A stretch of DNA of 53,667 nucleotides from Planctomycetota bacterium (GTDB lineage Bacteria > Planctomycetota > Planctomycetia > Pirellulales > Pirellulaceae). Made by a program: the position numbers and the translations under genes. The notes under the pieces are model-generated. The model did no database searches. It saw only the letters and a program-made list of their open reading frames with translations, and had not been told where the DNA came from. Of this stretch, positions 20,095 to 53,419 are shown in pieces; position 1 is the stretch's first letter, and every line of letters starts with the position of its first letter. The stretch spans positions 1-53,667 of the forward strand of contig JAQBZB010000023.1 of assembly GCA_027622275.1 (NCBI GenBank), written 5' to 3'.

Positions 20095-20123
20095 GGCTCG
20101 TCACGACGGAGCGTGACGGCTAC
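20095..20123. repeat. Solo REP-like element, family A (GTAGCC)
   Basis: One 29-bp arm of the family seen in pairs at 47715 and 49609. On the minus strand it reads GTAGCCGTCACG..CGTGACGAGCC, with a perfect 7-bp stem (CGTCACG / CGTGACG). Its GTAG overlaps the purN stop codon (TAG at 20122-20120). It lies between the truncated SDR and the convergent purN. Confidence 0.8.
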
Positions 20124-44864: not shown

Positions 44865-44930
44865 GTAGTGGTGGCTTCCAGCCGCCACAAATTCCCGTGA
44901 AATCACGTGGCGGCTGGAAGCCACCACTAC
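44865..44930. repeat. REPIN-like inverted repeat, family B (GTAGTGG)
   Basis: Perfect 24-bp arms (44865-44888 and 44907-44930) with an 18-bp spacer. Same family as 4576-4630. It follows the CE15 stop by 35 bp. Confidence 0.93.
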
Positions 44931-45120: not shown

Positions 45121-46641
45121 ATGGCCCGAAGTCCCAAAATCAAATCGCTCGCGGAACTCACGCAACTGCTCGCCGATCTGCGCGCCGAAACGGCACCGCG
45201 TGTTGTGCATTGCCACGGCGTCTTCGATCTGCTGCACATCGGCCACATCCGGTATCTTCAGCACGCGCGTGCTTTGGGCGATCTGTTGGTCGTCACGCTG
45301 ACCAAAGACGAGTTCGTTAACAAGGGGCCGCATCGCCCGGCGTTTACCGACGAGTTGCGGCTCGATGCGCTCGCGGCGTTGGATTGCATCGATTACGTTG
45401 CGATCAACGAGACGCCGACAGCGACCGCAGCGATCCGCCGGCTGAAGCCCGCGATCTTTGCCAAGGGGGCCGAGTTTCGCGACCGCAAGACGCCTGAGCT
45501 GCTGGAAGAGGAAGCCGTCGCGGCGGAAGTCGGAGCGGCCGTCGAGTTTATCGATGACGTGCGGTCCAGTTCGTCCCACCTGCTCAACAAATACCTCTCG
45601 CCGTTCGACGATGCGACGGAGCAGTATCTCCAGAACTTCCGCGAGAGCTACACCGCCGCTGACGTGATCGCCTGGCTCGAACGCGCTAAGGCGATGAAAG
45701 TCTTGGTCGTTGGCGAAGCGATCATCGACGAGTACTTCGCGTGTTCGACAATGGGTCAGTCGGCTAAGGCACCCATCCTCGCGACGCGTTACGAATCGCA
45801 CGAACGTTTCGCCGGTGGAACGCTGGCCGTCGCCAACCACTTGGCTCCGTTCTGCGGCCAGGTCGATCTGCTGGCGATGCTGGGCGCTCAAGACACGGAA
45901 GAAGAATGGGTCCGTTCACATCTCGCGCGGGGTGTGACTGGGCGCTTTCACTACAAGCAAGACTCGCCGACCATCGTCAAGCGCCGGTATCGCGAATCGT
46001 ATTTCGGAGTTCCGTTGTTTGCGATCAACTTCCTGAACGACAATCCACAATCGGCGTCCGACAACGCGAAGCTGTGCGGCATGTTGGACGAGTCGCTGGC
46101 CGACTACGACGCGGTCGTGGTCGCCGACTACGGCCACCAAATGCTGACGCCGCAAGCGATCCAGCTGCTCAGCGACAAGGCCCGCTTCTTGGCGGTCAAC
46201 ACGCAAGCGAACGCCGCGAACATGGGCTTCCATACAATTTCGAAATACCCGCGCGCCGATTACGTTTCGCTGGCGGAACGCGAGCTGCATCTGGAATGCC
46301 GCAGCCGCGGCGGCAATTTGGAAGAACTGCTGCTCGAAGTCGGCAAGCGGCTGTACGCGACCACGATCGCCGTCACGCTCGGCAAACGCGGCGCGTTGTG
46401 CTACAACCGGCGGGCTGGCTTTCACAAGGCACCGTCGCTGGCGACAAATGTCGTCGACCGCGTTGGTGCCGGCGATACGTTTCTCGCGATCAGTGCGTTG
46501 TGTGCCGCGCTGGACGCTCCACTCGACATCCTCTCTTTTTTGGGGAATGTTGCCGGCGCGGAAGCCGTCGCGGCCGTGGGAAACTCGCGCAGCCTGGAAG
46601 CCTTGTCGTTCCAGCGGCATATCGCATCGTTGTTCAAATAA
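45121..46641 (+). CDS. Nucleotidyltransferase-PfkB kinase fusion, reversed HldE order
   Basis: 506 residues from ATG 45121. The N-terminal half is a cytidylyltransferase-fold domain (GVFDLLHIGHIRYLQHAR with HxGH at 39-42). The C-terminal half from about 190 is a PfkB/ribokinase domain (MKVLVVGEAIIDEYF start, and NVVDRVGAGDTF with the catalytic Asp near 451). E. coli HldE, which makes ADP-heptose, has the kinase first. The reversed order makes it related to but distinct from HldE. Expected role: phosphorylating a sugar-phosphate at C1 and activating it with a nucleotide. First gene of the sugar operon; the next starts 6 bp after its stop. Confidence 0.85.
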   Translation: MARSPKIKSLAELTQLLADLRAETAPRVVHCHGVFDLLHIGHIRYLQHARALGDLLVVTLTKDEFVNKGPHRPAFTDELRLDALAALDCIDYVAINETPTATAAIRRLKPAIFAKGAEFRDRKTPELLEEEAVAAEVGAAVEFIDDVRSSSSHLLNKYLSPFDDATEQYLQNFRESYTAADVIAWLERAKAMKVLVVGEAIIDEYFACSTMGQSAKAPILATRYESHERFAGGTLAVANHLAPFCGQVDLLAMLGAQDTEEEWVRSHLARGVTGRFHYKQDSPTIVKRRYRESYFGVPLFAINFLNDNPQSASDNAKLCGMLDESLADYDAVVVADYGHQMLTPQAIQLLSDKARFLAVNTQANAANMGFHTISKYPRADYVSLAERELHLECRSRGGNLEELLLEVGKRLYATTIAVTLGKRGALCYNRRAGFHKAPSLATNVVDRVGAGDTFLAISALCAALDAPLDILSFLGNVAGAEAVAAVGNSRSLEALSFQRHIASLFK

Positions 46642-46647
46642 CCTCTG

Positions 46648-47715
46648 ATGGGAGAGCCAGCGTTGGCCGACATCAACCAAGTGCCCGATATCAACCAAGT
46701 GCCCGATATCAACCAAGTGCCCGATATCAATCAAGTGCTAGTGACTGGCGGGGCCGGCTACGTCGGCGCGGTGCTCGTGCCGAAGCTGCTCGCGGCCGGG
46801 TATCGCGTGAAAGTGCTCGACCTCTTTCTGTTCGGCGAGCAGGTCCTCGACGATGTCCGCGAACACGAGAACCTCGAACTGATCCGGGGCGACATTCGCA
46901 ATCGCGAGTTGCTGGAACAGTCGTTCCCCGGTTGCGACGCCATTATTCATCTGGCCTGCATCTCGAACGATCCGAGCTTCGATCTGGCACCGGAACTCGG
47001 CAAGTCGATTAACTACGATGCCTTCTTCGATATCGTCGACGTGGCGAAGCGAGTCGGCGTGCGGCGTTTCATCTATGCATCGTCGTCCAGCGTGTACGGC
47101 GTGAAGGCGGATCCGAACGTCACCGAAGACCTGCCGCTCGAACCGCTGACGGACTACTCGAAGTACAAAGCGCTGTGCGAGGACGTGCTGCTCGAGAACC
47201 GCGTGCCGGGCTTCACGACGCTGATTTTGCGTCCCGCCACGGTCTGTGGCGACTCGCCTCGGCTGCGGCTTGACTTGACCGTGAACATTCTCACGAACCA
47301 CGCTTACCACAACCGCGTGATCAAAGTCTTCGGCGGGCAACAGATGCGGCCGAACCTGCACATCCAGGACATGACCGATCTGTACATCCAATCGCTGCAG
47401 TGGCCCGCTGAGGCCATCGACGGCAAGATTTTTAACGCTGGGTACGAGAACCACAAAGTTGCCGAAATCGCCGAGATCGTGCGCCAGGTCATCGGCGACG
47501 ACGTCCAGATCGTCACGACGCCGACCGACGATCACCGCTCGTATCACATTTGTTCCGACAAGATCCGTCGCGAGCTGGGCTTCGAGCCGCGGTACACGAT
47601 CGAGAACGCGGTCGAAGATCTGCTCAGCGCCTTCCAAGCCGGGCGTGTTCCCAACGCGATGGACGATGAGCGATACTACAACGTCAAGTTGATGAAGAAT
47701 CACGAATTGAAATAG
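46648..47715 (+). CDS. NAD-dependent epimerase/dehydratase with N-terminal hexapeptide repeat
   Basis: 355 residues. Extended SDR: cofactor loop TGGAGYVG (33-40), HLACISNDP, the catalytic Ser in SSSSVYG and YSKYK (YxxxK), and LRPATVCGDSPR. Residues 8-31 are four units of DINQVP (the last ends QVL), encoded by an 18-bp tandem repeat; the fold starts inside the last unit. The likely substrate is a nucleotide-sugar. The last codons run into a palindromic repeat that shares the stop's G. Confidence 0.87.
   Translation: MGEPALADINQVPDINQVPDINQVPDINQVLVTGGAGYVGAVLVPKLLAAGYRVKVLDLFLFGEQVLDDVREHENLELIRGDIRNRELLEQSFPGCDAIIHLACISNDPSFDLAPELGKSINYDAFFDIVDVAKRVGVRRFIYASSSSVYGVKADPNVTEDLPLEPLTDYSKYKALCEDVLLENRVPGFTTLILRPATVCGDSPRLRLDLTVNILTNHAYHNRVIKVFGGQQMRPNLHIQDMTDLYIQSLQWPAEAIDGKIFNAGYENHKVAEIAEIVRQVIGDDVQIVTTPTDDHRSYHICSDKIRRELGFEPRYTIENAVEDLLSAFQAGRVPNAMDDERYYNVKLMKNHELK
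46669..46740 (+). repeat. 18-bp tandem repeat, four copies
   Basis: Units begin at 46669, 46687, 46705 and 46723. They read GA(C/T)ATCAACCAAGTGCCC; units two and three are identical, unit one has one change and the last three. Encodes DINQVP repeated within the epimerase gene, directly before its nucleotide-binding strand. Confidence 0.95.
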
Positions 47716-47832
47716 TAGCCATCACGCTCCGCCGTGATGAGCCTAATCGAGAAGACGCCAAGCCGCGTGGGGTGCCGTTTCAGAAACCACGCTCAGTGTG
47801 GCAGGCTCATCACGGCGGAGCGTGATGGCTAC
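47715..47832. repeat. REPIN-like inverted repeat, family A (GTAGCC)
   Basis: Perfect 29-bp arms (47715-47743 and 47804-47832), each with GTAG plus a 7-bp hairpin (CATCACG / CGTGATG), separated by 60 bp. The left arm shares its first G with the epimerase stop codon. The right arm contains an ATG in frame with the next gene. Confidence 0.93.
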
Positions 47833-47869
47833 ATTGAAGACGATAAACTGCAAGCGATTCAGCCAGCTC

Positions 47870-48706
47870 ATGCCACGTTCCGACACGACGACCGACCTTC
47901 ACCGCATCGCCCGCGAGTTGCGTGCGCGAGTGATTCGCATGTCGCATGATGGCCGAGCGCCGCATCTCGGCTCGTCGCTGTCGTGCATCGACATTTTGGT
48001 GGCGGCTTACTGGCGATGTCTGAAGATCGATCCGGCCACGCCGCTCGATCCCGATCGCGACCGCTTCATCTTGAGCAAGGGTCACGCCGCCGCCGCGCTC
48101 TACGCGACGTTGGCGAAACGCGGTTTCTTCGACGCCGACGAGTTGCACACCTATAACGTGGCGGGAAGCCGCTTTCCCGAGCAGCCAAGTCCTCGCGCCG
48201 TACCTGGCGTCGAAGCAGCAACAGGCTCGCTCGGACATGGCCTATCGATCGGTCTTGGGATGGCGCTTGCTTCGCGAGTCCAGAATCGCGACTGCCGAGT
48301 TATCACGGTGTTGAGCGACGGCGAGTGCAACGAAGGGACGGTTTGGGAAGCCGCCATGTTTGCGGCGGCCCAGCGGCTCGACAACGTCACCGTCATCGTC
48401 GACTTCAATCGTTGGCAAGCGACCGATCGCAGCGAAGAGGTCATGGCGATTAGCCCGTTGGTCGACAAATGGCAAGCGTTCGGCTGGTCCGCGGTCGAAG
48501 TCGACGGCCACGACGTCGAAGCCTTGGCTGATTACATGAACGGCGCACCGCTCGACGCAGGCAAGCCGACCGCGATCATCGCTCGGACGACCAAAGGGAA
48601 AGGCGTGTCGTTCATGGAGGACGACAACAACTGGCATTACCGCATCCCGAACGATGACGAACTTCAAGCGGCTCTTGACGAGTTGGGAGTGGCCGCCGAT
48701 GCGTAA
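47870..48706 (+). CDS. Transketolase-like subunit, N-terminal (TPP-binding) half
   Basis: 278 residues from ATG 47870; an in-frame ATG at 47825, inside the repeat, is an alternative. TPP/Mg2+ motif: SDGECNEGTVWEAAMFAAAQRLDNVTVIVDFN (GDGE...N type, 149-180). Also HLGSSLSCIDILVAAYW, SKGHAAAALYATLA and TGSLGHGLSIGLG. It carries the cofactor half of a two-subunit transketolase, which moves two-carbon units between sugar phosphates. Its stop overlaps the start of the C-terminal half by 8 bp. Confidence 0.92.
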   Translation: MPRSDTTTDLHRIARELRARVIRMSHDGRAPHLGSSLSCIDILVAAYWRCLKIDPATPLDPDRDRFILSKGHAAAALYATLAKRGFFDADELHTYNVAGSRFPEQPSPRAVPGVEAATGSLGHGLSIGLGMALASRVQNRDCRVITVLSDGECNEGTVWEAAMFAAAQRLDNVTVIVDFNRWQATDRSEEVMAISPLVDKWQAFGWSAVEVDGHDVEALADYMNGAPLDAGKPTAIIARTTKGKGVSFMEDDNNWHYRIPNDDELQAALDELGVAADA

Positions 48707-49631
48707 TGCCTTCGCCAAAGAACTGACCGCGTTGGGCGAGCAAGACGAGCGGATCGTCTTGCTGTCCGGCGACATCGGCAATCGCATGTTCGACGACTTC
48801 AAGTCGCGCTGCCCGGGCCGGTTCTTCAACTGCGGCATTGCGGAAGGCAACATGATGAGCATGGCGGCCGGCCTCGCGATGAGCGGGATGCGGCCGGTCG
48901 TCTACACCATCGTGCCGTTCGTGACCACTCGTTGTTTGGAACAGATTCGCGTCGACGTCTGCTATCACCGCGTGCCTGTCATTATCGTCGGCGTCGGCGG
49001 CGGGCTCGCCTACGCGAGTCTCGGCGCGACACATCACTCGTGCGAAGACATCGGCTTCCTGCGACTGCTGCCCAACATGACCGTCGTCTGCCCTGCCGAC
49101 TCGGCGGAGACTCGCGGCGCGTTTCGAGCGGCACTCGAATGCGAGCACGGCGTCTACATCCGGCTCGGCAAGAAGGGCGAACCGGATGTGCATCGGCAAG
49201 ACCCAACCTTCAAACTTGGCAAAGCAATCCTGATGCGCGACGGACGCGATGTCACGCTGATCAGCACCGGCAACATGCTTCCCACCACCATCGAGGCAGC
49301 GGATTTGCTTGCCGCATCGAGTGTTTCCGCGCGAGTTATCAGCATGCACACCGTCAAACCGCTCGACGAAGAAACTCTGGCGGAGGCTTTCGCATCAACA
49401 TCGCTCGTCGTCACGATCGAGGAACACAGCGTCATTGGCGGATTGGGCGGGGCGGTGGCGGAATGGCAAAGCGAACATACCAGCGGCGGCGGCAGGCTGT
49501 TACGCATCGGAACGCCCGATCACTTCTTGCACGAAGCCGGCAATCAACGACATGCGCGCCGCGTCTTGCATCTCGATGCCGAGTCGATCGCGGCCAGAAT
49601 TCTCCAAAGTAGCCGTCACGCTCCGCCGTGA
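48699..49631 (+). CDS. Transketolase-like subunit, C-terminal half
   Basis: 310 residues from ATG 48699. The pyrimidine-binding domain has the catalytic Glu in FNCGIAEGNMMSMAAGLAMSG, and TTRCLEQIRVDVCY and SLGATHHSCEDIGFLRLLPNMTVVCPAD follow. The transketolase C domain (TLISTGNMLPTTIEAADLL, HTVKPLDEETL, TIEEHSVIGGLGGAV) completes it. It pairs with the N-terminal subunit encoded just before. Its final residues SSRHAPP and stop are encoded by a REP-like element, so the original tail was probably changed by insertion. Confidence 0.92.
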   Translation: MRNAFAKELTALGEQDERIVLLSGDIGNRMFDDFKSRCPGRFFNCGIAEGNMMSMAAGLAMSGMRPVVYTIVPFVTTRCLEQIRVDVCYHRVPVIIVGVGGGLAYASLGATHHSCEDIGFLRLLPNMTVVCPADSAETRGAFRAALECEHGVYIRLGKKGEPDVHRQDPTFKLGKAILMRDGRDVTLISTGNMLPTTIEAADLLAASSVSARVISMHTVKPLDEETLAEAFASTSLVVTIEEHSVIGGLGGAVAEWQSEHTSGGGRLLRIGTPDHFLHEAGNQRHARRVLHLDAESIAARILQSSRHAPP

Positions 49632-49726
49632 CGAGCCTTCCGGAGACGAGTCGGCACTATGATTAGGCGTCCAGGCGAATCGACGTTGACGCAATAGGGC
49701 TCATCACGGCGGAGCGTGATGGCTAC
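49609..49726. repeat. REPIN-like inverted repeat, family A (GTAGCC)
   Basis: Arms 49609-49637 and 49698-49726, 29 bp each, differ by paired changes: the left arm has CGTCACG/CGTGACG stems, the right CATCACG/CGTGATG when read in the same orientation. The left arm codes the end of the transketolase C subunit. The right arm lies 10 bp before the dehydrogenase start. Confidence 0.93.
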
Positions 49727-49736
49727 GATAGGAAAC

Positions 49737-50777
49737 ATGAAAACAACTGCTGCCATCCTGGTTGAAACGGGCCGACCGCTCGAAGTCGCTGACATCGAGA
49801 TCCCGCAGCTCAAGCCTGGTCAGGTGCTGGTGCGACTTGCGTACAGCGGCGTTTGCCACACGCAATTGCTGGAATGCCGAGGCTATCGTGGAGAAGATCG
49901 ATTCCTGCCGCATTGCTTGGGTCATGAAGGGAGCGGGACGATCATCGACGTCGGGCTCGACGTGACGAAGTGTCGCATTGACGATCGCGTCATCCTTTCC
50001 TGGATCAAAGGGAGCGGCGGCGACGTGCCGGGCTCGACGTACGATTGGAATGGACGAACCGTTAACGCGGGCGGACTCACAACGTTCATGACGCACGCGC
50101 TCGTCAGTGAGAATCGGGTGACCAGGCTCGATGATGAAGTCGATTTCCCTGTTGCGGCGCTGATTGGATGCGCTTGTGCCACCGGAGCGGGATCAGTTTG
50201 GAATTCAGCGGCGCTCAAAAAGGGAGAGACGTTGGCTGTGTTCGGCACTGGCGGCGTTGGCTTGTGCGCGGTCGCGGCAGGCGCATTGACTGGCGCGAAA
50301 GCGGTGATTGCCGTCGATGTGAACGCGACTCGACTGGAGTTGGCAAGACAAGTCGGCGCGACGCTGACGATCGACGCATCACAAGTAGACGCGGTCGCGA
50401 AGATCCGCGAGTTGTTTCCCGGCGGCTTGGATCATGCTGTCGAAGCCAGCGGACGACCGGCAGTGATGCGACAGGCTTTAGCTTGCGTCCGCCCGCGCGG
50501 AGGCCAAGCCGTCGTCATCGGCAACGCTCGATGTGGCGAAATGCTCGTGATCAATCCGGCTGAGTTGAATCAAGGCAAGCGGTTAGTCGGAACGTGGGGC
50601 GGCGATTGCGATCCGGATCGTGACTTTGAGAAGATTTCGCGGCTTATTGCGAGTGGCCAACTGCCGCTCGATCACTTGCTCGGCAAGCAGTATTCGCTGC
50701 TCGAAGTCAATGATGCACTCGCCGATCTCGAAAGCGGCAGCGTGGCCCGACCCTTGCTCGACTTGACACGAGCGTAA
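49737..50777 (+). CDS. Zinc-type medium-chain alcohol dehydrogenase
   Basis: 346 residues from ATG 49737 (AGGAA 5 bp upstream). MDR family: catalytic-zinc ligands Cys40 (SGVCHTQ) and His63-Glu64 (LGHEGSG), and the cofactor loop FGTGGVGLCA. The four-cysteine structural-zinc lobe is missing; that segment reads SWIKGSGGDVPGSTYDWNG. It likely oxidises a sugar or reduces a sugar aldehyde in the operon's pathway. HAD gene starts 4 bp after its stop. Confidence 0.88.
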   Translation: MKTTAAILVETGRPLEVADIEIPQLKPGQVLVRLAYSGVCHTQLLECRGYRGEDRFLPHCLGHEGSGTIIDVGLDVTKCRIDDRVILSWIKGSGGDVPGSTYDWNGRTVNAGGLTTFMTHALVSENRVTRLDDEVDFPVAALIGCACATGAGSVWNSAALKKGETLAVFGTGGVGLCAVAAGALTGAKAVIAVDVNATRLELARQVGATLTIDASQVDAVAKIRELFPGGLDHAVEASGRPAVMRQALACVRPRGGQAVVIGNARCGEMLVINPAELNQGKRLVGTWGGDCDPDRDFEKISRLIASGQLPLDHLLGKQYSLLEVNDALADLESGSVARPLLDLTRA

Positions 50778-50781
50778 TGCG

Positions 50782-51375
50782 ATGCGAATCGGAATCGATC
50801 TGGATAACACGATTGTTTGTTATGACGGCTTGTTTCATCAGGTCGCGGTGCGGCGCGGTCTGATCCCGACCGATCTCGCGACCGACAAACAGGCGGTGCG
50901 AGACTATTTGCGAGCCGATGGCCGGAACGACGATTGGACGGAACTTCAGGGATTGGTGTATGGCGAGGCGATGAACGAAGCGCAGCCGTACTCCGGCGTC
51001 GCGGAGTTCATCGTGGCGGCGTTGCGGAACGATTGGACCGTGTTCGTGATCAGTCACCGCACGCGGCAGCCGTATCTCGGCCCGCCGCACGATTTGCACG
51101 CCGCGGCCCGTGCGTGGTTAGCGTCGAACGTGATGTTGCCTGAGGCGAACGTCTTTCTCGAAGTCTCGTTGGAAGATAAGCTGCAACGCATCGCCGAACA
51201 ACATTGCGACCTGTTCGTTGACGATCTGCCCGAACTGCTGCTCCATCCCGGCTTTCCAGCAGAGGTTGAACGCGTTTGCTTTGATCCGGCGAATCGATGT
51301 ATCGAAACGGACCTGCAACGTGTGACTGCTTGGAGCGAGCTGACGGCTCGTTGGTTCGGCGGGGAGATCTCATGA
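50782..51375 (+). CDS. HAD-superfamily phosphatase-like protein
   Basis: 197 residues. The N-terminal DLDNT motif (IGIDLDNTIVCYD) is the HAD nucleophile site; VFVISHRT is motif II and FVDDLPELL is motif IV. A cap region is inserted after motif I. It resembles small 5'-nucleotidase/sugar-phosphate phosphatases, with the reaction not certain. Its stop overlaps the next start by ATGA, so translation is coupled. Confidence 0.82.
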   Translation: MRIGIDLDNTIVCYDGLFHQVAVRRGLIPTDLATDKQAVRDYLRADGRNDDWTELQGLVYGEAMNEAQPYSGVAEFIVAALRNDWTVFVISHRTRQPYLGPPHDLHAAARAWLASNVMLPEANVFLEVSLEDKLQRIAEQHCDLFVDDLPELLLHPGFPAEVERVCFDPANRCIETDLQRVTAWSELTARWFGGEIS

Positions 51376-52421
51376 ACAACCAGTTGTCACGGGAAGAACT
51401 TGTTTTGCTGTCGACAAGTGGCACTGAGTTGTTGAAGTCCGTGGGTCTCGGTGGCGACGTAAGTTTCGAGCGGTTGTCGGGCGGGCGAAATAACCGTGTC
51501 TATCGCGTTGCCGCTCGCGACGCGACCATCGTGCTGAAGTGGTACTTTCGCCATGCCGACGACCAGCGGGATCGGCTAAACGCAGAGTACCTATTCTGCG
51601 AGTATGCGGTCGATTGCGGTGCCACGTGTGTCGCGAAACCACTTGGCCGGGACAACGCATCGCAGCTGGCGGCCTACTCGTTAGTCGAAGGTCAACGCCT
51701 TGCTTGTGGCCAGATCGAAACGAACCACACGGAACAAGCAATTGCCTTTCTCCACCTCTTAAATGAACACCGTGCGGGAGACATTGCCAAGCGATTGCCC
51801 ATCGCCTCAGAGGCATGCTTCTCGCTCCAAGAGCACGTCGATTGTGTTTCCGCGCGAGTCGCAAGAGTCCAGGGCATCGCTCCTTCTGCGGAACATCATG
51901 GCAAGGCCGTGGAACTGGTTGATACCACGATTGCGCCGGCGCTTGTGCAAGCGGTGAACGAGTTGCAGGCGTGGGCGCGAAAATCGGACATCAGCATGCG
52001 TGCCTCGCTCACGGCCGAGCAACGATGCGTTTCGCCTTCCGACTTCGGCTTTCACAATGCGTTGCTGCGTGAACACGGAGAGTTGAGCTTTTTCGATTTC
52101 GAGTACGCCGGATGGGACGACCCGGCGAAGCTGCTGTGTGATTTCTATTGCCAGCCACAGGTTCCCGCTCTGCGCGAAACGTGGCGGCAATTCGCGGATC
52201 TGACGGCGACGCTCGCTGGCGACACGGAACTTGAGCGACAGCGACAGGCCTTGTTGTTCCCGCTCTATCAAGTCAAATGGTGCTGTATTCTGCTGAACGA
52301 ATTCGTGGCCACCGCCCGCGATCGGCGCAAGTTCGCGGAGCAGCAACCGGCGGACCTTGCGTTGCAACTTGAAAAGGCAAAGCGATTGGCGGATCAACTG
52401 CCCCAAGTAACCGAACCATGA
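51372..52421 (+). CDS. Small-molecule kinase, APH/choline-kinase family
   Basis: 349 residues from ATG 51372 with GGGGAG upstream; coupled to the HAD gene by ATGA. Protein-kinase-like fold: LSGGRNNRVYRVAARDATIVLKWY (ATP loop and Lys), the catalytic loop SPSDFGFHNALL (usual HGDxxxxN; here the first residues are CVSPSD), and FFDFEYAGWDDP (metal Asp). Such enzymes phosphorylate aminoglycosides, choline, or sugars. In this operon a sugar or polyol is likely. Coupled to the next gene by ATGA. Confidence 0.82.
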   Translation: MNNQLSREELVLLSTSGTELLKSVGLGGDVSFERLSGGRNNRVYRVAARDATIVLKWYFRHADDQRDRLNAEYLFCEYAVDCGATCVAKPLGRDNASQLAAYSLVEGQRLACGQIETNHTEQAIAFLHLLNEHRAGDIAKRLPIASEACFSLQEHVDCVSARVARVQGIAPSAEHHGKAVELVDTTIAPALVQAVNELQAWARKSDISMRASLTAEQRCVSPSDFGFHNALLREHGELSFFDFEYAGWDDPAKLLCDFYCQPQVPALRETWRQFADLTATLAGDTELERQRQALLFPLYQVKWCCILLNEFVATARDRRKFAEQQPADLALQLEKAKRLADQLPQVTEP

Positions 52422-53419
52422 GTAATTCGCGAAAGATCGTCGTACTCGGTGCCAATTCGTTTTCCGGGCAGGACTTTGTTGACTTGCTGCTCGACAATCC
52501 TCGCAACGAAGTCATCGGCATCAGCCGCTCGCCGCTTCGCAGTTCGGCGTTCATTCGGCATCTGCGGCGTGATGACCTGTCGAGGTTTCGCTATTTTGCG
52601 CTCGATATGAACAGCGACATCGATCGCATTCTAGAGCTATTGGACACCAAGCAACCGCAAGCCATCGTTAACTTTGCGGCTCAAAGCGAAGTCGCTCCGA
52701 GTTGGGAGAATCCGCATCAGTGGTTTCAAACCAATTGCGTTGCGTTGGCGCGGCTCGTGAATCATTTGCGAGACAAGAAGTATCTTGAGCGTTACTTGCA
52801 CGTGTCGTCGCCAGAAGTGTACGGCACTTGCGTCGGTACCGTTTTGGAAGACGCACCGGTCAATCCGAGCACTCCCTACGCCGCGTCGAAGGCCGCCGCC
52901 GACATGCTGCTCGACACCTATCGTCGTCAGTTCGGCTTTCCGCTACTGACGGTGCGAGCCACCAATGTTTATGGTGCTCGACAGCAACTGTTCAAGATTA
53001 TTCCGCGATCCGTGCTGTACATGAAGTCGGGAAGGAAAATCCCGCTGCACGGCGGTGGTCAAGCCGTGAAGTCTTACATCCATATTCGTGACGTCTCGCG
53101 CGGCGAGTTGGCGATCTTGGATCAAGGGCAGATTGGCGAGATCTATCACTTGTCGCCTGACACAGGCGTCTCGATTCGTCGCGTTGTCGAAACGGTTGCG
53201 AAGCGACTGGGCGTTGAGTTCGCGCAGACTGTCGAAATCGTCGACGAGCGACCGGGGCAAGACGCGGCGTATCTGATCGATTCGACGAAAGCCCGCGGCG
53301 AACTTGGCTGGTCGCCGCAAATTGACTTTGCATCCGGCATCGAAGAAGTTGTCGGCTGGGTCGAAGAAAACTGGGAAGTCTTGCGGCACGAGCCGTGGGG
53401 CTATCAGCACAAGGCGTGA
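52418..53419 (+). CDS. NAD-dependent epimerase/dehydratase, GDP-mannose/dTDP-glucose 4,6-dehydratase-like
   Basis: 333 residues. Extended SDR with cofactor loop GANSFSG (a serine replaces the middle glycine of GxxGxxG), NFAAQSEVAPSWENPHQWFQTN, SSPEVYG, YAASK (catalytic Tyr and Lys), VRATNVYGARQQLFKIIP and SYIHIRDVSRGELAIL. These fit nucleotide-sugar dehydratases or epimerases. Last gene of the operon seen here; it overlaps the kinase gene by ATGA and ends before a terminator. Confidence 0.88.
   Translation: MSNSRKIVVLGANSFSGQDFVDLLLDNPRNEVIGISRSPLRSSAFIRHLRRDDLSRFRYFALDMNSDIDRILELLDTKQPQAIVNFAAQSEVAPSWENPHQWFQTNCVALARLVNHLRDKKYLERYLHVSSPEVYGTCVGTVLEDAPVNPSTPYAASKAAADMLLDTYRRQFGFPLLTVRATNVYGARQQLFKIIPRSVLYMKSGRKIPLHGGGQAVKSYIHIRDVSRGELAILDQGQIGEIYHLSPDTGVSIRRVVETVAKRLGVEFAQTVEIVDERPGQDAAYLIDSTKARGELGWSPQIDFASGIEEVVGWVEENWEVLRHEPWGYQHKA

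What the first reader, a model, noticed from the sequence alone, without database searches (positions are those of the whole stretch)
45121..53419. Eight-gene operon that may make an undescribed activated sugar
A reversed-order HldE-like fusion, two nucleotide-sugar SDRs, a split transketolase, an MDR dehydrogenase, a HAD phosphatase and an APH-type kinase lie in one direction with 4-bp overlaps or small gaps. Heptose activation (kinase, phosphatase, nucleotidyltransferase) is known for ADP- and GDP-heptose. A transketolase plus dehydrogenase in the same unit suggests remodelling the carbon chain first, perhaps giving an unusual ketose- or heptose-derived nucleotide sugar for a surface glycan. 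The combination is what is seen; the product is inference.
Basis: partly seen in the sequence, partly recalled or inferred. Interest (0 to 1): 0.68.

Follow-up and report, generated by a model that had tools for sequence, protein, structure and literature searches.

The report
Operon for a probable branched sugar
Eight neighbouring genes, which recur together in very different bacteria, look like an assembly line for an activated sugar whose carbon skeleton a modified transketolase probably branches or extends before the sugar goes into a surface glycan; the sugar itself has not been identified.

Summary
In detail: eight same-strand genes (HldE-like fusion with the nucleotidyltransferase domain first, SDR1, split transketolase, MDR, HAD, APH, SDR2) lie at 45121-53419; the contig ends 248 bp later. 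The set is co-conserved. Of 80 APH-seeded loci, 38 carry SDR1, TKN, TKC, MDR, HAD, APH and SDR2; eight keep all eight genes in the window's order (titles: Planctomycetota, Armatimonadetes, Dehalococcoidia, Nitrospirales, Elusimicrobia, one unassigned). In 294 genomes of the window's phylum, all 7 with HAD are among the 8 with APH (p=2e-13).

Three results point to mechanism. (1) The transketolases keep thiamine-site residues, but in 62 of 62 rows position 461 is G (E. coli H) and 520 is K (R), and 469 is never D; this alters the sugar-phosphate acceptor site. (2) SDR1's nearest solved structure is, by recall, Cj1427, a GDP-heptose C4-dehydrogenase. (3) In three relatives the slot after SDR1 holds PDH-type E1 alpha/beta, a class reported to branch keto-sugars with C2 units.

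Best reading: NDP-heptose is oxidised to a 4-ketone and the transketolase adds a two-carbon branch. No reaction was shown; substrate and product are inference. Novelty: new variant of a known kind.

The parts
45121..46641 (+). HldE-like fusion in reversed order: RfaE-II-like nucleotidyltransferase (HxGH motif) then PfkB kinase (GAGD)
   Evidence: below the HldE/RfaE equivalog cut-offs (156.1 of 521, 112.7 of 345, 100.4 of 181.5 bits)
46648..47715 (+). SDR1, putative NDP-heptose 4-dehydrogenase; start uncertain, catalytic domain from about 46738
   Evidence: best solved match 6vo6/6vo8, 209.8 bits vs 141.4 for the next
47870..48706 (+). TKN, N-terminal half of split transketolase (ThDP/Mg positions kept; the H100 position is Q)
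48699..49631 (+). TKC, C-terminal half of split transketolase; acceptor positions H461>G, D469>L, R520>K (E. coli numbering)
49737..50777 (+). MDR zinc-type alcohol dehydrogenase (alternative start 49716)
50782..51375 (+). HAD phosphatase, 5'(3')-deoxyribonucleotidase-like fold, no Pfam/NCBIfam hit
51372..52421 (+). APH/choline-kinase-fold small-molecule kinase (D224, N229, D242 of the protein)
52418..53419 (+). SDR2, RmlB-like dehydratase/epimerase family with (S/T)PE active-site motif
47715..47832 (.). inverted-repeat element, copy 1 (30-bp arms, 100%)
49609..49726 (.). inverted-repeat element, copy 2 (29-bp arms, 93%); overlaps the last 23 bp of TKC

Best explanation
The operon makes a nucleotide-activated branched (about nine-carbon) sugar for a surface glycan. 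Steps: a GmhA-like isomerase (in trans here) gives a heptose 7-phosphate; the HldE-like protein phosphorylates C1 and, after a phosphatase (perhaps the HAD) removes the distal phosphate, couples the sugar-1-phosphate to a nucleotide; SDR1 oxidises C4 of the NDP-heptose to a ketone; the split transketolase transfers a two-carbon hydroxyacetyl unit to that ketone, making a tertiary alcohol; MDR and/or SDR2 reduce or further modify the product; APH and the downstream methyltransferase decorate it. Shown here: gene set, co-conservation, conserved catalytic residues, altered acceptor positions, slot exchange with E1 alpha/beta. Inferred: every substrate, the order of steps and the product. The roles of APH, HAD, MDR and SDR2 are the least certain.
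For: Co-conservation: 80 loci; 294 genomes of the window's phylum. Of 14 loci with no TKC in the fetched flanks, 11 were followed: in 11 of 11 the genome has a TKC homologue elsewhere (52-68% identity in 4, 40-44% in 7; six of these seven were put in the tree and all show G/L/K). TK acceptor site: position 461 G, 520 K in 62/62, 469 L or N in 62/62, with ThDP, Mg and catalytic positions kept. Tree of 64 TKCs: a 55-row clade (100/97) with G461 in 55 of 55 and in 0 of 9 rows outside. A Methylovirgula TK directly after rfbF-rfbG-SDR-rfbH (an expected CDP-4-keto-sugar context) also has G461/K520. Positions 385, 469 and 520 are those changed in a laboratory E. coli TK to shift its acceptor (PMC5073344, abstract and passages); a phosphate-orienting RSFHR motif is described in PMC11659671 (passages). 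SDR1's nearest solved structure is 6vo6/6vo8; Cj1427 C4-oxidises GDP-heptose (PMC10680097, passages; PMC7949155, passages). SDR1 has a TK in its locus in 51 of 51 APH-seeded loci; E1 alpha/beta follow SDR1 in L037, L053, L172. C2 branching by alpha-keto-acid-dehydrogenase-type pairs, and split TK proposed for keto-sugars: PMC12247030 (passages and section 2.3); that those pairs are PDH-E1-like is recalled.
Against: No reaction, substrate or product was shown. That 6vo6/6vo8 is Cj1427 is recalled; the structure paper is not held. Loss of H461 and D469 alone is not special to this set: control TKs from Rhizobium and Deinococcus (S/L/R), Methylobacterium (A/G/R) and Cryobacterium (N/L/G) have lost both too, so the argument rests on G461 with K520 and on context. 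Two of nine evaluable SDR1-bearing genomes of the phylum sample show no TK or E1 pair near it (G004, G118; other ThDP families were not searched there). The donor-side H100 position is Q in 19 of 61 TKN rows, the window's included. Whether S385 is lost depends on the alignment (gap, R). GmhA is missing from the window, and the GmhA-like proteins of two relatives score far below the equivalog cut-offs (71.5 and 68.4 of 209.45 bits). SDR2 could make a different 4-keto acceptor. HldE-like and SDR1 stand together without TK in L037 and L044. The one published glycan checked for a relative (Kuenenia, PMC5088730) shows no such sugar.
Confidence: 0.46

Rival explanations
1. The transketolase adds C2 to a different nucleotide keto-sugar, the 4-keto-6-deoxy product of SDR2 (RmlB-like), and the heptose is a second, separate sugar; the operon is two pathways side by side.
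For: SDR2 is closest to dTDP-glucose 4,6-dehydratases and keeps the catalytic-type Glu in 59 of 59 rows; in G303 HldE-SDR1-TKN-TKC lies on another contig than MDR-HAD-APH; SDR2 is present in 61 of 80 loci and next to an E1 pair in L172; the Methylovirgula TK lies beside a CDP-4-keto-hexose pathway.
Against: The ThDP enzyme stands next to SDR1 even where no close SDR2 homologue is seen (L034, L037, L053). SDR2 has P at the position of the RmlB Asp (that role recalled) in 58 of 59 and R for the YxxxK lysine in 24 of 59.
Confidence: 0.2
2. The transketolase extends a free sugar phosphate (for example to an octulose 8-phosphate) that is then isomerised, phosphorylated, dephosphorylated and nucleotidylated, as in the GDP-octose route to lincosamides (recalled, from no call).
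For: Some control TKs without the H461/D469 pair lie in contexts that look catabolic (Deinococcus, beside an FGGY kinase and sugar ABC transport genes).
Against: G461 and K520 in 62 of 62; TK slot shared with E1 alpha/beta, which by general knowledge use 2-keto acids; SDR1 with TK in 51 of 51 seeded loci.
Confidence: 0.14
3. The transketolase only supplies sedoheptulose 7-phosphate for an otherwise ordinary NDP-heptose pathway.
For: Heptose-like activation genes; a GmhA-like gene nearby in relatives.
Against: The genome has three other proteins with a transketolase pyrimidine domain (which are TK and which DXS was not settled); the acceptor site is altered; E1 pairs, not known to make sedoheptulose phosphate, fill the slot in relatives.
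Confidence: 0.07
4. HAD and APH (perhaps with MDR) make a separately activated non-sugar or polyol phosphate decoration rather than acting on the branched sugar. This can be true together with the best explanation.
For: The APH model matches choline/ethanolamine kinases and APH(9) among many others; HAD and APH are within 250 bp in 78 of 79 loci; in G303 and G304 HAD-APH lies on another contig than TK.
Against: HAD/TKC and APH/TKC co-occur genome-wide (p 6e-11 and 2e-10).
Confidence: 0.13

Closest known systems
GDP-D-glycero-heptose 4-ketone pathway of Campylobacter jejuni capsule (isomerase, kinase, phosphatase, guanosyltransferase, Cj1427; PMC10680097, passages)
   Same: heptose activation logic; SDR1 nearest in the PDB to 6vo6/6vo8, recalled to be Cj1427
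   Different: here a ThDP two-carbon ligase goes with the dehydrogenase where Campylobacter has epimerase and C4-reductase; kinase and NTase are one reversed fusion
YerE-type and alpha-KADH2-type branched-sugar pathways (yersiniose, avilamycin, trioxacarcin; PMC12247030, passages)
   Same: ThDP enzyme adds a short carbon unit to a keto-sugar
   Different: here a split transketolase; probable hydroxyacetyl donor; probable heptose acceptor; glycan loci of many bacterial groups
Split transketolases proposed for miharamycin/amipurimycin (PMC12247030 section 2.3)
   Same: split TK with a proposed keto-sugar acceptor
   Different: the 13 noted there are all from Streptomycetes and uncharacterised; this set is in glycan-type loci of many other groups. 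Their sequences were not compared here
Carboxydothermus split transketolase (6yaj/6yak)
   Same: two-chain architecture, ThDP site
   Different: keeps the H, D, R acceptor residues in the printed alignment; the window has G, L, K
HldE / ADP-heptose pathway
   Same: kinase and nucleotidyltransferase domains
   Different: domain order reversed, scores far below equivalog cut-offs; no GmhB model hit in this draft genome

Membership tests
HldE (ADP-heptose synthase) | kinase domain first, nucleotidyltransferase second | tested here: not met
   Order reversed
HldE (ADP-heptose synthase) | score over curated equivalog cut-offs | tested here: not met
   156.1/521, 112.7/345, 100.4/181.5 bits
HldE (ADP-heptose synthase) | catalytic motifs HxGH and GAGD | tested here: met
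   Window has both; the two His of HxGH 33 and 32 of 35 rows, GAGD 35 of 35
ADP-/GDP-heptose pathway | GmhA isomerase in the unit | tested here: not met
   Absent from the window; SIS_2 genes on C483 and C444, function not tested; GmhA-like genes present in several relatives
ADP-/GDP-heptose pathway | GmhB phosphatase in genome | tested here: inconclusive
   No TIGR00213 hit at E<=1e-3, but the genome is a draft and the model rings in only 5 of 14 control genomes
Transketolase | ThDP, Mg and catalytic residues | tested here: met
   H26,H66,G114,D155,N185,H261 61/61; E411,H473 62/62; the H100 donor position is Q in the window
Transketolase | sugar-phosphate acceptor residues H461, D469, R520 | tested here: not met
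   G, L/N, K in 62/62; several other TKs lack H461/D469 too
Cj1427-type NDP-heptose C4-dehydrogenase | closest to Cj1427 among solved structures | tested here: inconclusive
   209.8 vs 141.4 bits to 6vo6/6vo8; identity of that entry with Cj1427 is recalled
Cj1427-type NDP-heptose C4-dehydrogenase | alpha-ketoglutarate-dependent oxidation at C4 | not testable with these tools
   needs enzyme assay
ThDP-dependent sugar-branching enzymes | transfer of a carbon unit to an NDP-keto-sugar | not testable with these tools
   only context and residues
HAD phosphatase | DxD, S/T, K, DD motifs | tested here: met
   79 of 79 rows; fold
APH-fold kinase | catalytic Asp/Asn and metal Asp | tested here: met
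   79 of 79 rows; fold

The most novel reading that the evidence does not exclude
A clade of split transketolases spread over many bacterial phyla has been recruited to build branched, roughly nine-carbon nucleotide sugars from 4-keto-NDP-heptose, a class of surface-glycan building block not yet described as far as these searches reach, with donor chemistry (hydroxyacetyl) unlike the acetyl branch of yersiniose-type sugars.
Probability: 0.37. Interest if true: 0.82.

Novelty: new variant of a known kind. Interest (0 to 1): 0.63.

Why it matters
A review calls the proposed transfer of a two-carbon unit by transketolase to a keto-sugar still pending, with 13 Streptomycete candidates and none characterised in vitro (PMC12247030 section 2.3). 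It would also add a new kind of monosaccharide to bacterial glycans and a possible biocatalyst for tertiary alcohols.

Tried and rejected
Ten paper searches found no description of this gene set in their listings; the library holds only CC0/CC BY/CC BY-SA papers. Bradyrhizose as product: none of the 20 papers listed (of 3,628) held the word. Kuenenia S-layer glycan (PMC5088730, abstract and passages): five HexNAc and a 174-Da unit, nothing that fits; L061 is a MAG labelled Kuenenia and the glycan need not come from this locus. CDP-glucitol pathway (PMC10918830, abstract and start of the introduction): two different enzymes, not pursued. Fold searches of APH and HAD gave only broad families. 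Phages: 32 records match TKN at under 60% identity; not followed. The apparent absence of TK in Gemmataceae loci was at least partly a flank limit: for L105 the TK, SDR1 and HldE-like genes lie just beyond (L165).
Full report
The observation. The window is contig C102 of an unnamed 9.78-Mb draft genome. The HldE-like protein has its nucleotidyltransferase first and its PfkB kinase second; the kinase is first in HldE. The HAD has no Pfam or NCBIfam match, but its motifs are intact in 79 of 79 rows and its model (mean pLDDT 95.4) is nearest to 5'(3')-deoxyribonucleotidases. APH is a generic small-molecule kinase by fold. The contig ends 248 bp after SDR2. Contig C425 probably continues it: it carries a methyltransferase 92% identical to the one about 1.3 kb after SDR2 in L055, relatives of C-methyltransferases and of a WbuC-type cupin (by similarity), an aldo/keto reductase and two glycosyltransferases (Pfam). 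The joining is inference. So this is probably part of a surface-glycan cluster.

Co-conservation. Within them: HAD 79, TKC 66, MDR 65 (of varied identity), TKN 64, SDR2 61 and SDR1 51 of 80 (SDRs counted at 40% identity or more), HldE-like 49 (includes distant forms; 37 in the close cluster), GmhA-like 26, and a 220-aa methyltransferase 60. In the 49 loci with at least 7 kb upstream and 3 kb downstream: SDR1 39, TKN 41, TKC 41, MDR 44, SDR2 44. All seven of SDR1, TKN, TKC, MDR, HAD, APH and SDR2 stand in 38 of 80 and 33 of 49; with an HldE-like gene, 33 of 80 and 28 of 49. Eight loci have the window's eight genes in the same order: L055 (Planctomycetota), L068 (Armatimonadetes), L075 (unassigned bacterium), L090 (Dehalococcoidia), L109 and L119 (Nitrospirales), L110 and L131 (Elusimicrobia). 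Titles are as deposited, most are MAGs, and labels were not checked. Records titled as strains include two Herbaspirillum (L120, L133) and Desulfobacter latus (L123).

The 80 loci were seeded with APH, so I also used an even draw of 294 genomes of the window's phylum. Hits: APH 8, HAD 7, SDR1 10. TKC gave 28 genomes at E<=1e-60; I counted the 7 at 53% identity or more and dropped the 21 at 36-45%, a line drawn after seeing the gap. HldE-like gave 27 at E<=1e-30; I counted the 13 with 36% or more over most of the protein and dropped 14, one of which (G108) matches at 50% over the first domain only. HAD and APH share 7 (p=2e-13), APH and TKC 6 (p=2e-10; 7e-9 without the window genome), SDR1 and HldE 9 (p=2e-13), HAD and TKC 6 (p=6e-11), APH and SDR1 4 (p=5e-5), SDR1 and TKC 4 (p=2e-5). 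Related genomes are not independent, so the p values are indicative. Of the 14 loci with no TKC in the fetched flanks I followed 11 to their genomes: 11 of 11 have a TKC homologue elsewhere, at 52-68% in four and 40-44% in seven. Of the latter, L165 (the genome of L105) has TK, SDR1 (61%) and an HldE-like gene (51%) close by.

The transketolase. Rows were taken at 50% identity and 80% length (61 of 66 TKC loci plus the window; 60 of 64 TKN loci plus the window). Against E. coli TktA they keep H26, H66, G114, D155, N185, H261, E411 and H473 in all rows. Position 461 (H in E. coli) is G in 62 of 62, 520 (R) is K in 62 of 62, and 469 (D) is L in 51 and N in 11. H100, a donor contact (PMC7661550, passages), is H in 42 and Q in 19, the window among the latter. 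R358 is R in 60 and gapped in 2. S385 falls in a gap, or aligns with R in another alignment, so it is not counted. Residue roles not given by a cited paper are recalled. Controls: Fusobacterium, Collinsella and one Solidesulfovibrio TK have H/D/R at 461/469/520; Rhizobium and Deinococcus S/L/R; two Streptomyces H/Y/R and H/L/R; Methylobacterium A/G/R; Cryobacterium N/L/G; Azospirillum argentinense G/S/R. So H461 and D469 are also lost outside the set; G461 with K520 is what marks it. Methylovirgula, whose TK directly follows rfbF-rfbG-SDR-rfbH, has G/A/K. The second Solidesulfovibrio TK, beside its HAD-APH pair, has G/L/K. In a tree of 64 TKCs (half of the set sampled; bootstrap not settled; several long branches, L054 and L041 among them) a 55-row clade (100/97) holds every G461 row; none of the 9 rows outside has it. 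K520 fails in two rows inside (L054, L156). Positions 385, 469 and 520 were altered in the laboratory S385Y/D469T/R520Q variant that moved E. coli TK to other acceptors (PMC5073344, abstract and passages). PMC11659671 (passages) describes an RSFHR motif that orients the phosphate.

The ketone maker and the slot. SDR1 (Y170, K174 in 50 of 50 rows) finds 6vo6/6vo8 at 209.8 bits, the next at 141.4. I recall that entry as Cj1427; the PDB name is only 'putative sugar-nucleotide epimerase/dehydratease' (so spelt there). PMC10680097 (passages) describes Cj1427 as a GDP-heptose C4-dehydrogenase recycled by alpha-ketoglutarate. All 51 APH-seeded loci with SDR1 hold a TK. In the 10 phylum-sample genomes with SDR1, a TK stands near it in five (one divergent, 35-43%, L035), an E1 alpha/beta pair in two (L037, L172), neither in two (G004, G118; searched with TK and E1 queries only), and one contig is too short to tell (L011). 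Azospirillum oryzae (L053) also has HldE-like, SIS, SDR1, E1 alpha, E1 beta, two DegT. In L172 the E1 pair lies exactly between SDR1 and an SDR2 homologue (60%). A review (PMC12247030, passages and section 2.3) says that alpha-keto-acid-dehydrogenase-type enzymes branch keto-sugars with C2 units and that split TKs have been proposed, not shown, to do so.

Reading. SDR1 makes a 4-ketone on an NDP-heptose, and TK (or an E1 pair) adds two carbons to it. This accounts for the altered acceptor residues, the SDR1-ThDP link and the slot exchange. It does not by itself explain APH, HAD and SDR2. HAD may replace GmhB, for which the family model found nothing in this draft genome (a weak negative, since the model rings in 5 of 14 control genomes). 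MDR may reduce the branch ketone. These roles are guesses.

Limits. No activity, nucleotide, stereochemistry or product is known; the GmhA step is in trans here; many records are MAGs. The gene set is a new variant of a known kind (nucleotide-sugar pathway with ThDP branching), not a new kind of system. On re-checking, the controls that lack H461/D469 without K520 were added to the evidence against, and I lowered the best explanation from 0.48 to 0.46 and the novel case from 0.38 to 0.37 for that; two rivals rose by 0.01 each.

Noticed in passing
window 47715-47832 and 49609-49726; half-copy 20097-20122: Two copies of a 118-bp element with 29-30 bp terminal inverted repeats sit at the two widest gaps of the operon; the second overlaps the last 23 bp of TKC. 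The first gap is only 22 bp in the close relative L055.
   Followed up: partly
window 46667-46738: Four tandem 18-bp repeats at the 5' end of SDR1, leaving its true start uncertain.
   Followed up: no
window 44865-44930: Perfect 24-bp inverted repeat upstream of the operon, possibly a terminator or mobile hairpin.
   Followed up: no
L136 3974-5727: Methylovirgula plasmid: split transketolase directly after rfbF, rfbG, SDR, rfbH, as if replacing YerE in a yersiniose-like pathway.
   Followed up: partly
L053 10338-17817: Azospirillum oryzae plasmid: HldE-like, SIS, SDR1, E1 alpha/beta with no E2/E3 annotated in the 35 kb shown, two DegT aminotransferases.
   Followed up: partly
L128 7465-9314 and 11879-13728: Two closely similar TKN-TKC pairs in one Verrucomicrobia locus; duplication or assembly effect.
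   Followed up: no
L175 1892-2874 and 4519-5630: Pieces of two TKN-TKC copies in one locus, as after a partial duplication.
   Followed up: no
G000 contig C425 (L161, L162): Probable continuation of the cluster: methyltransferase, C-methyltransferase and WbuC-cupin relatives, aldo/keto reductase, glycosyltransferases.
   Followed up: partly
L139 3965-5793: Streptomyces plasmid split TK beside a DegT aminotransferase and near a BtrH-domain protein, with an H/Y/R acceptor signature.
   Followed up: no
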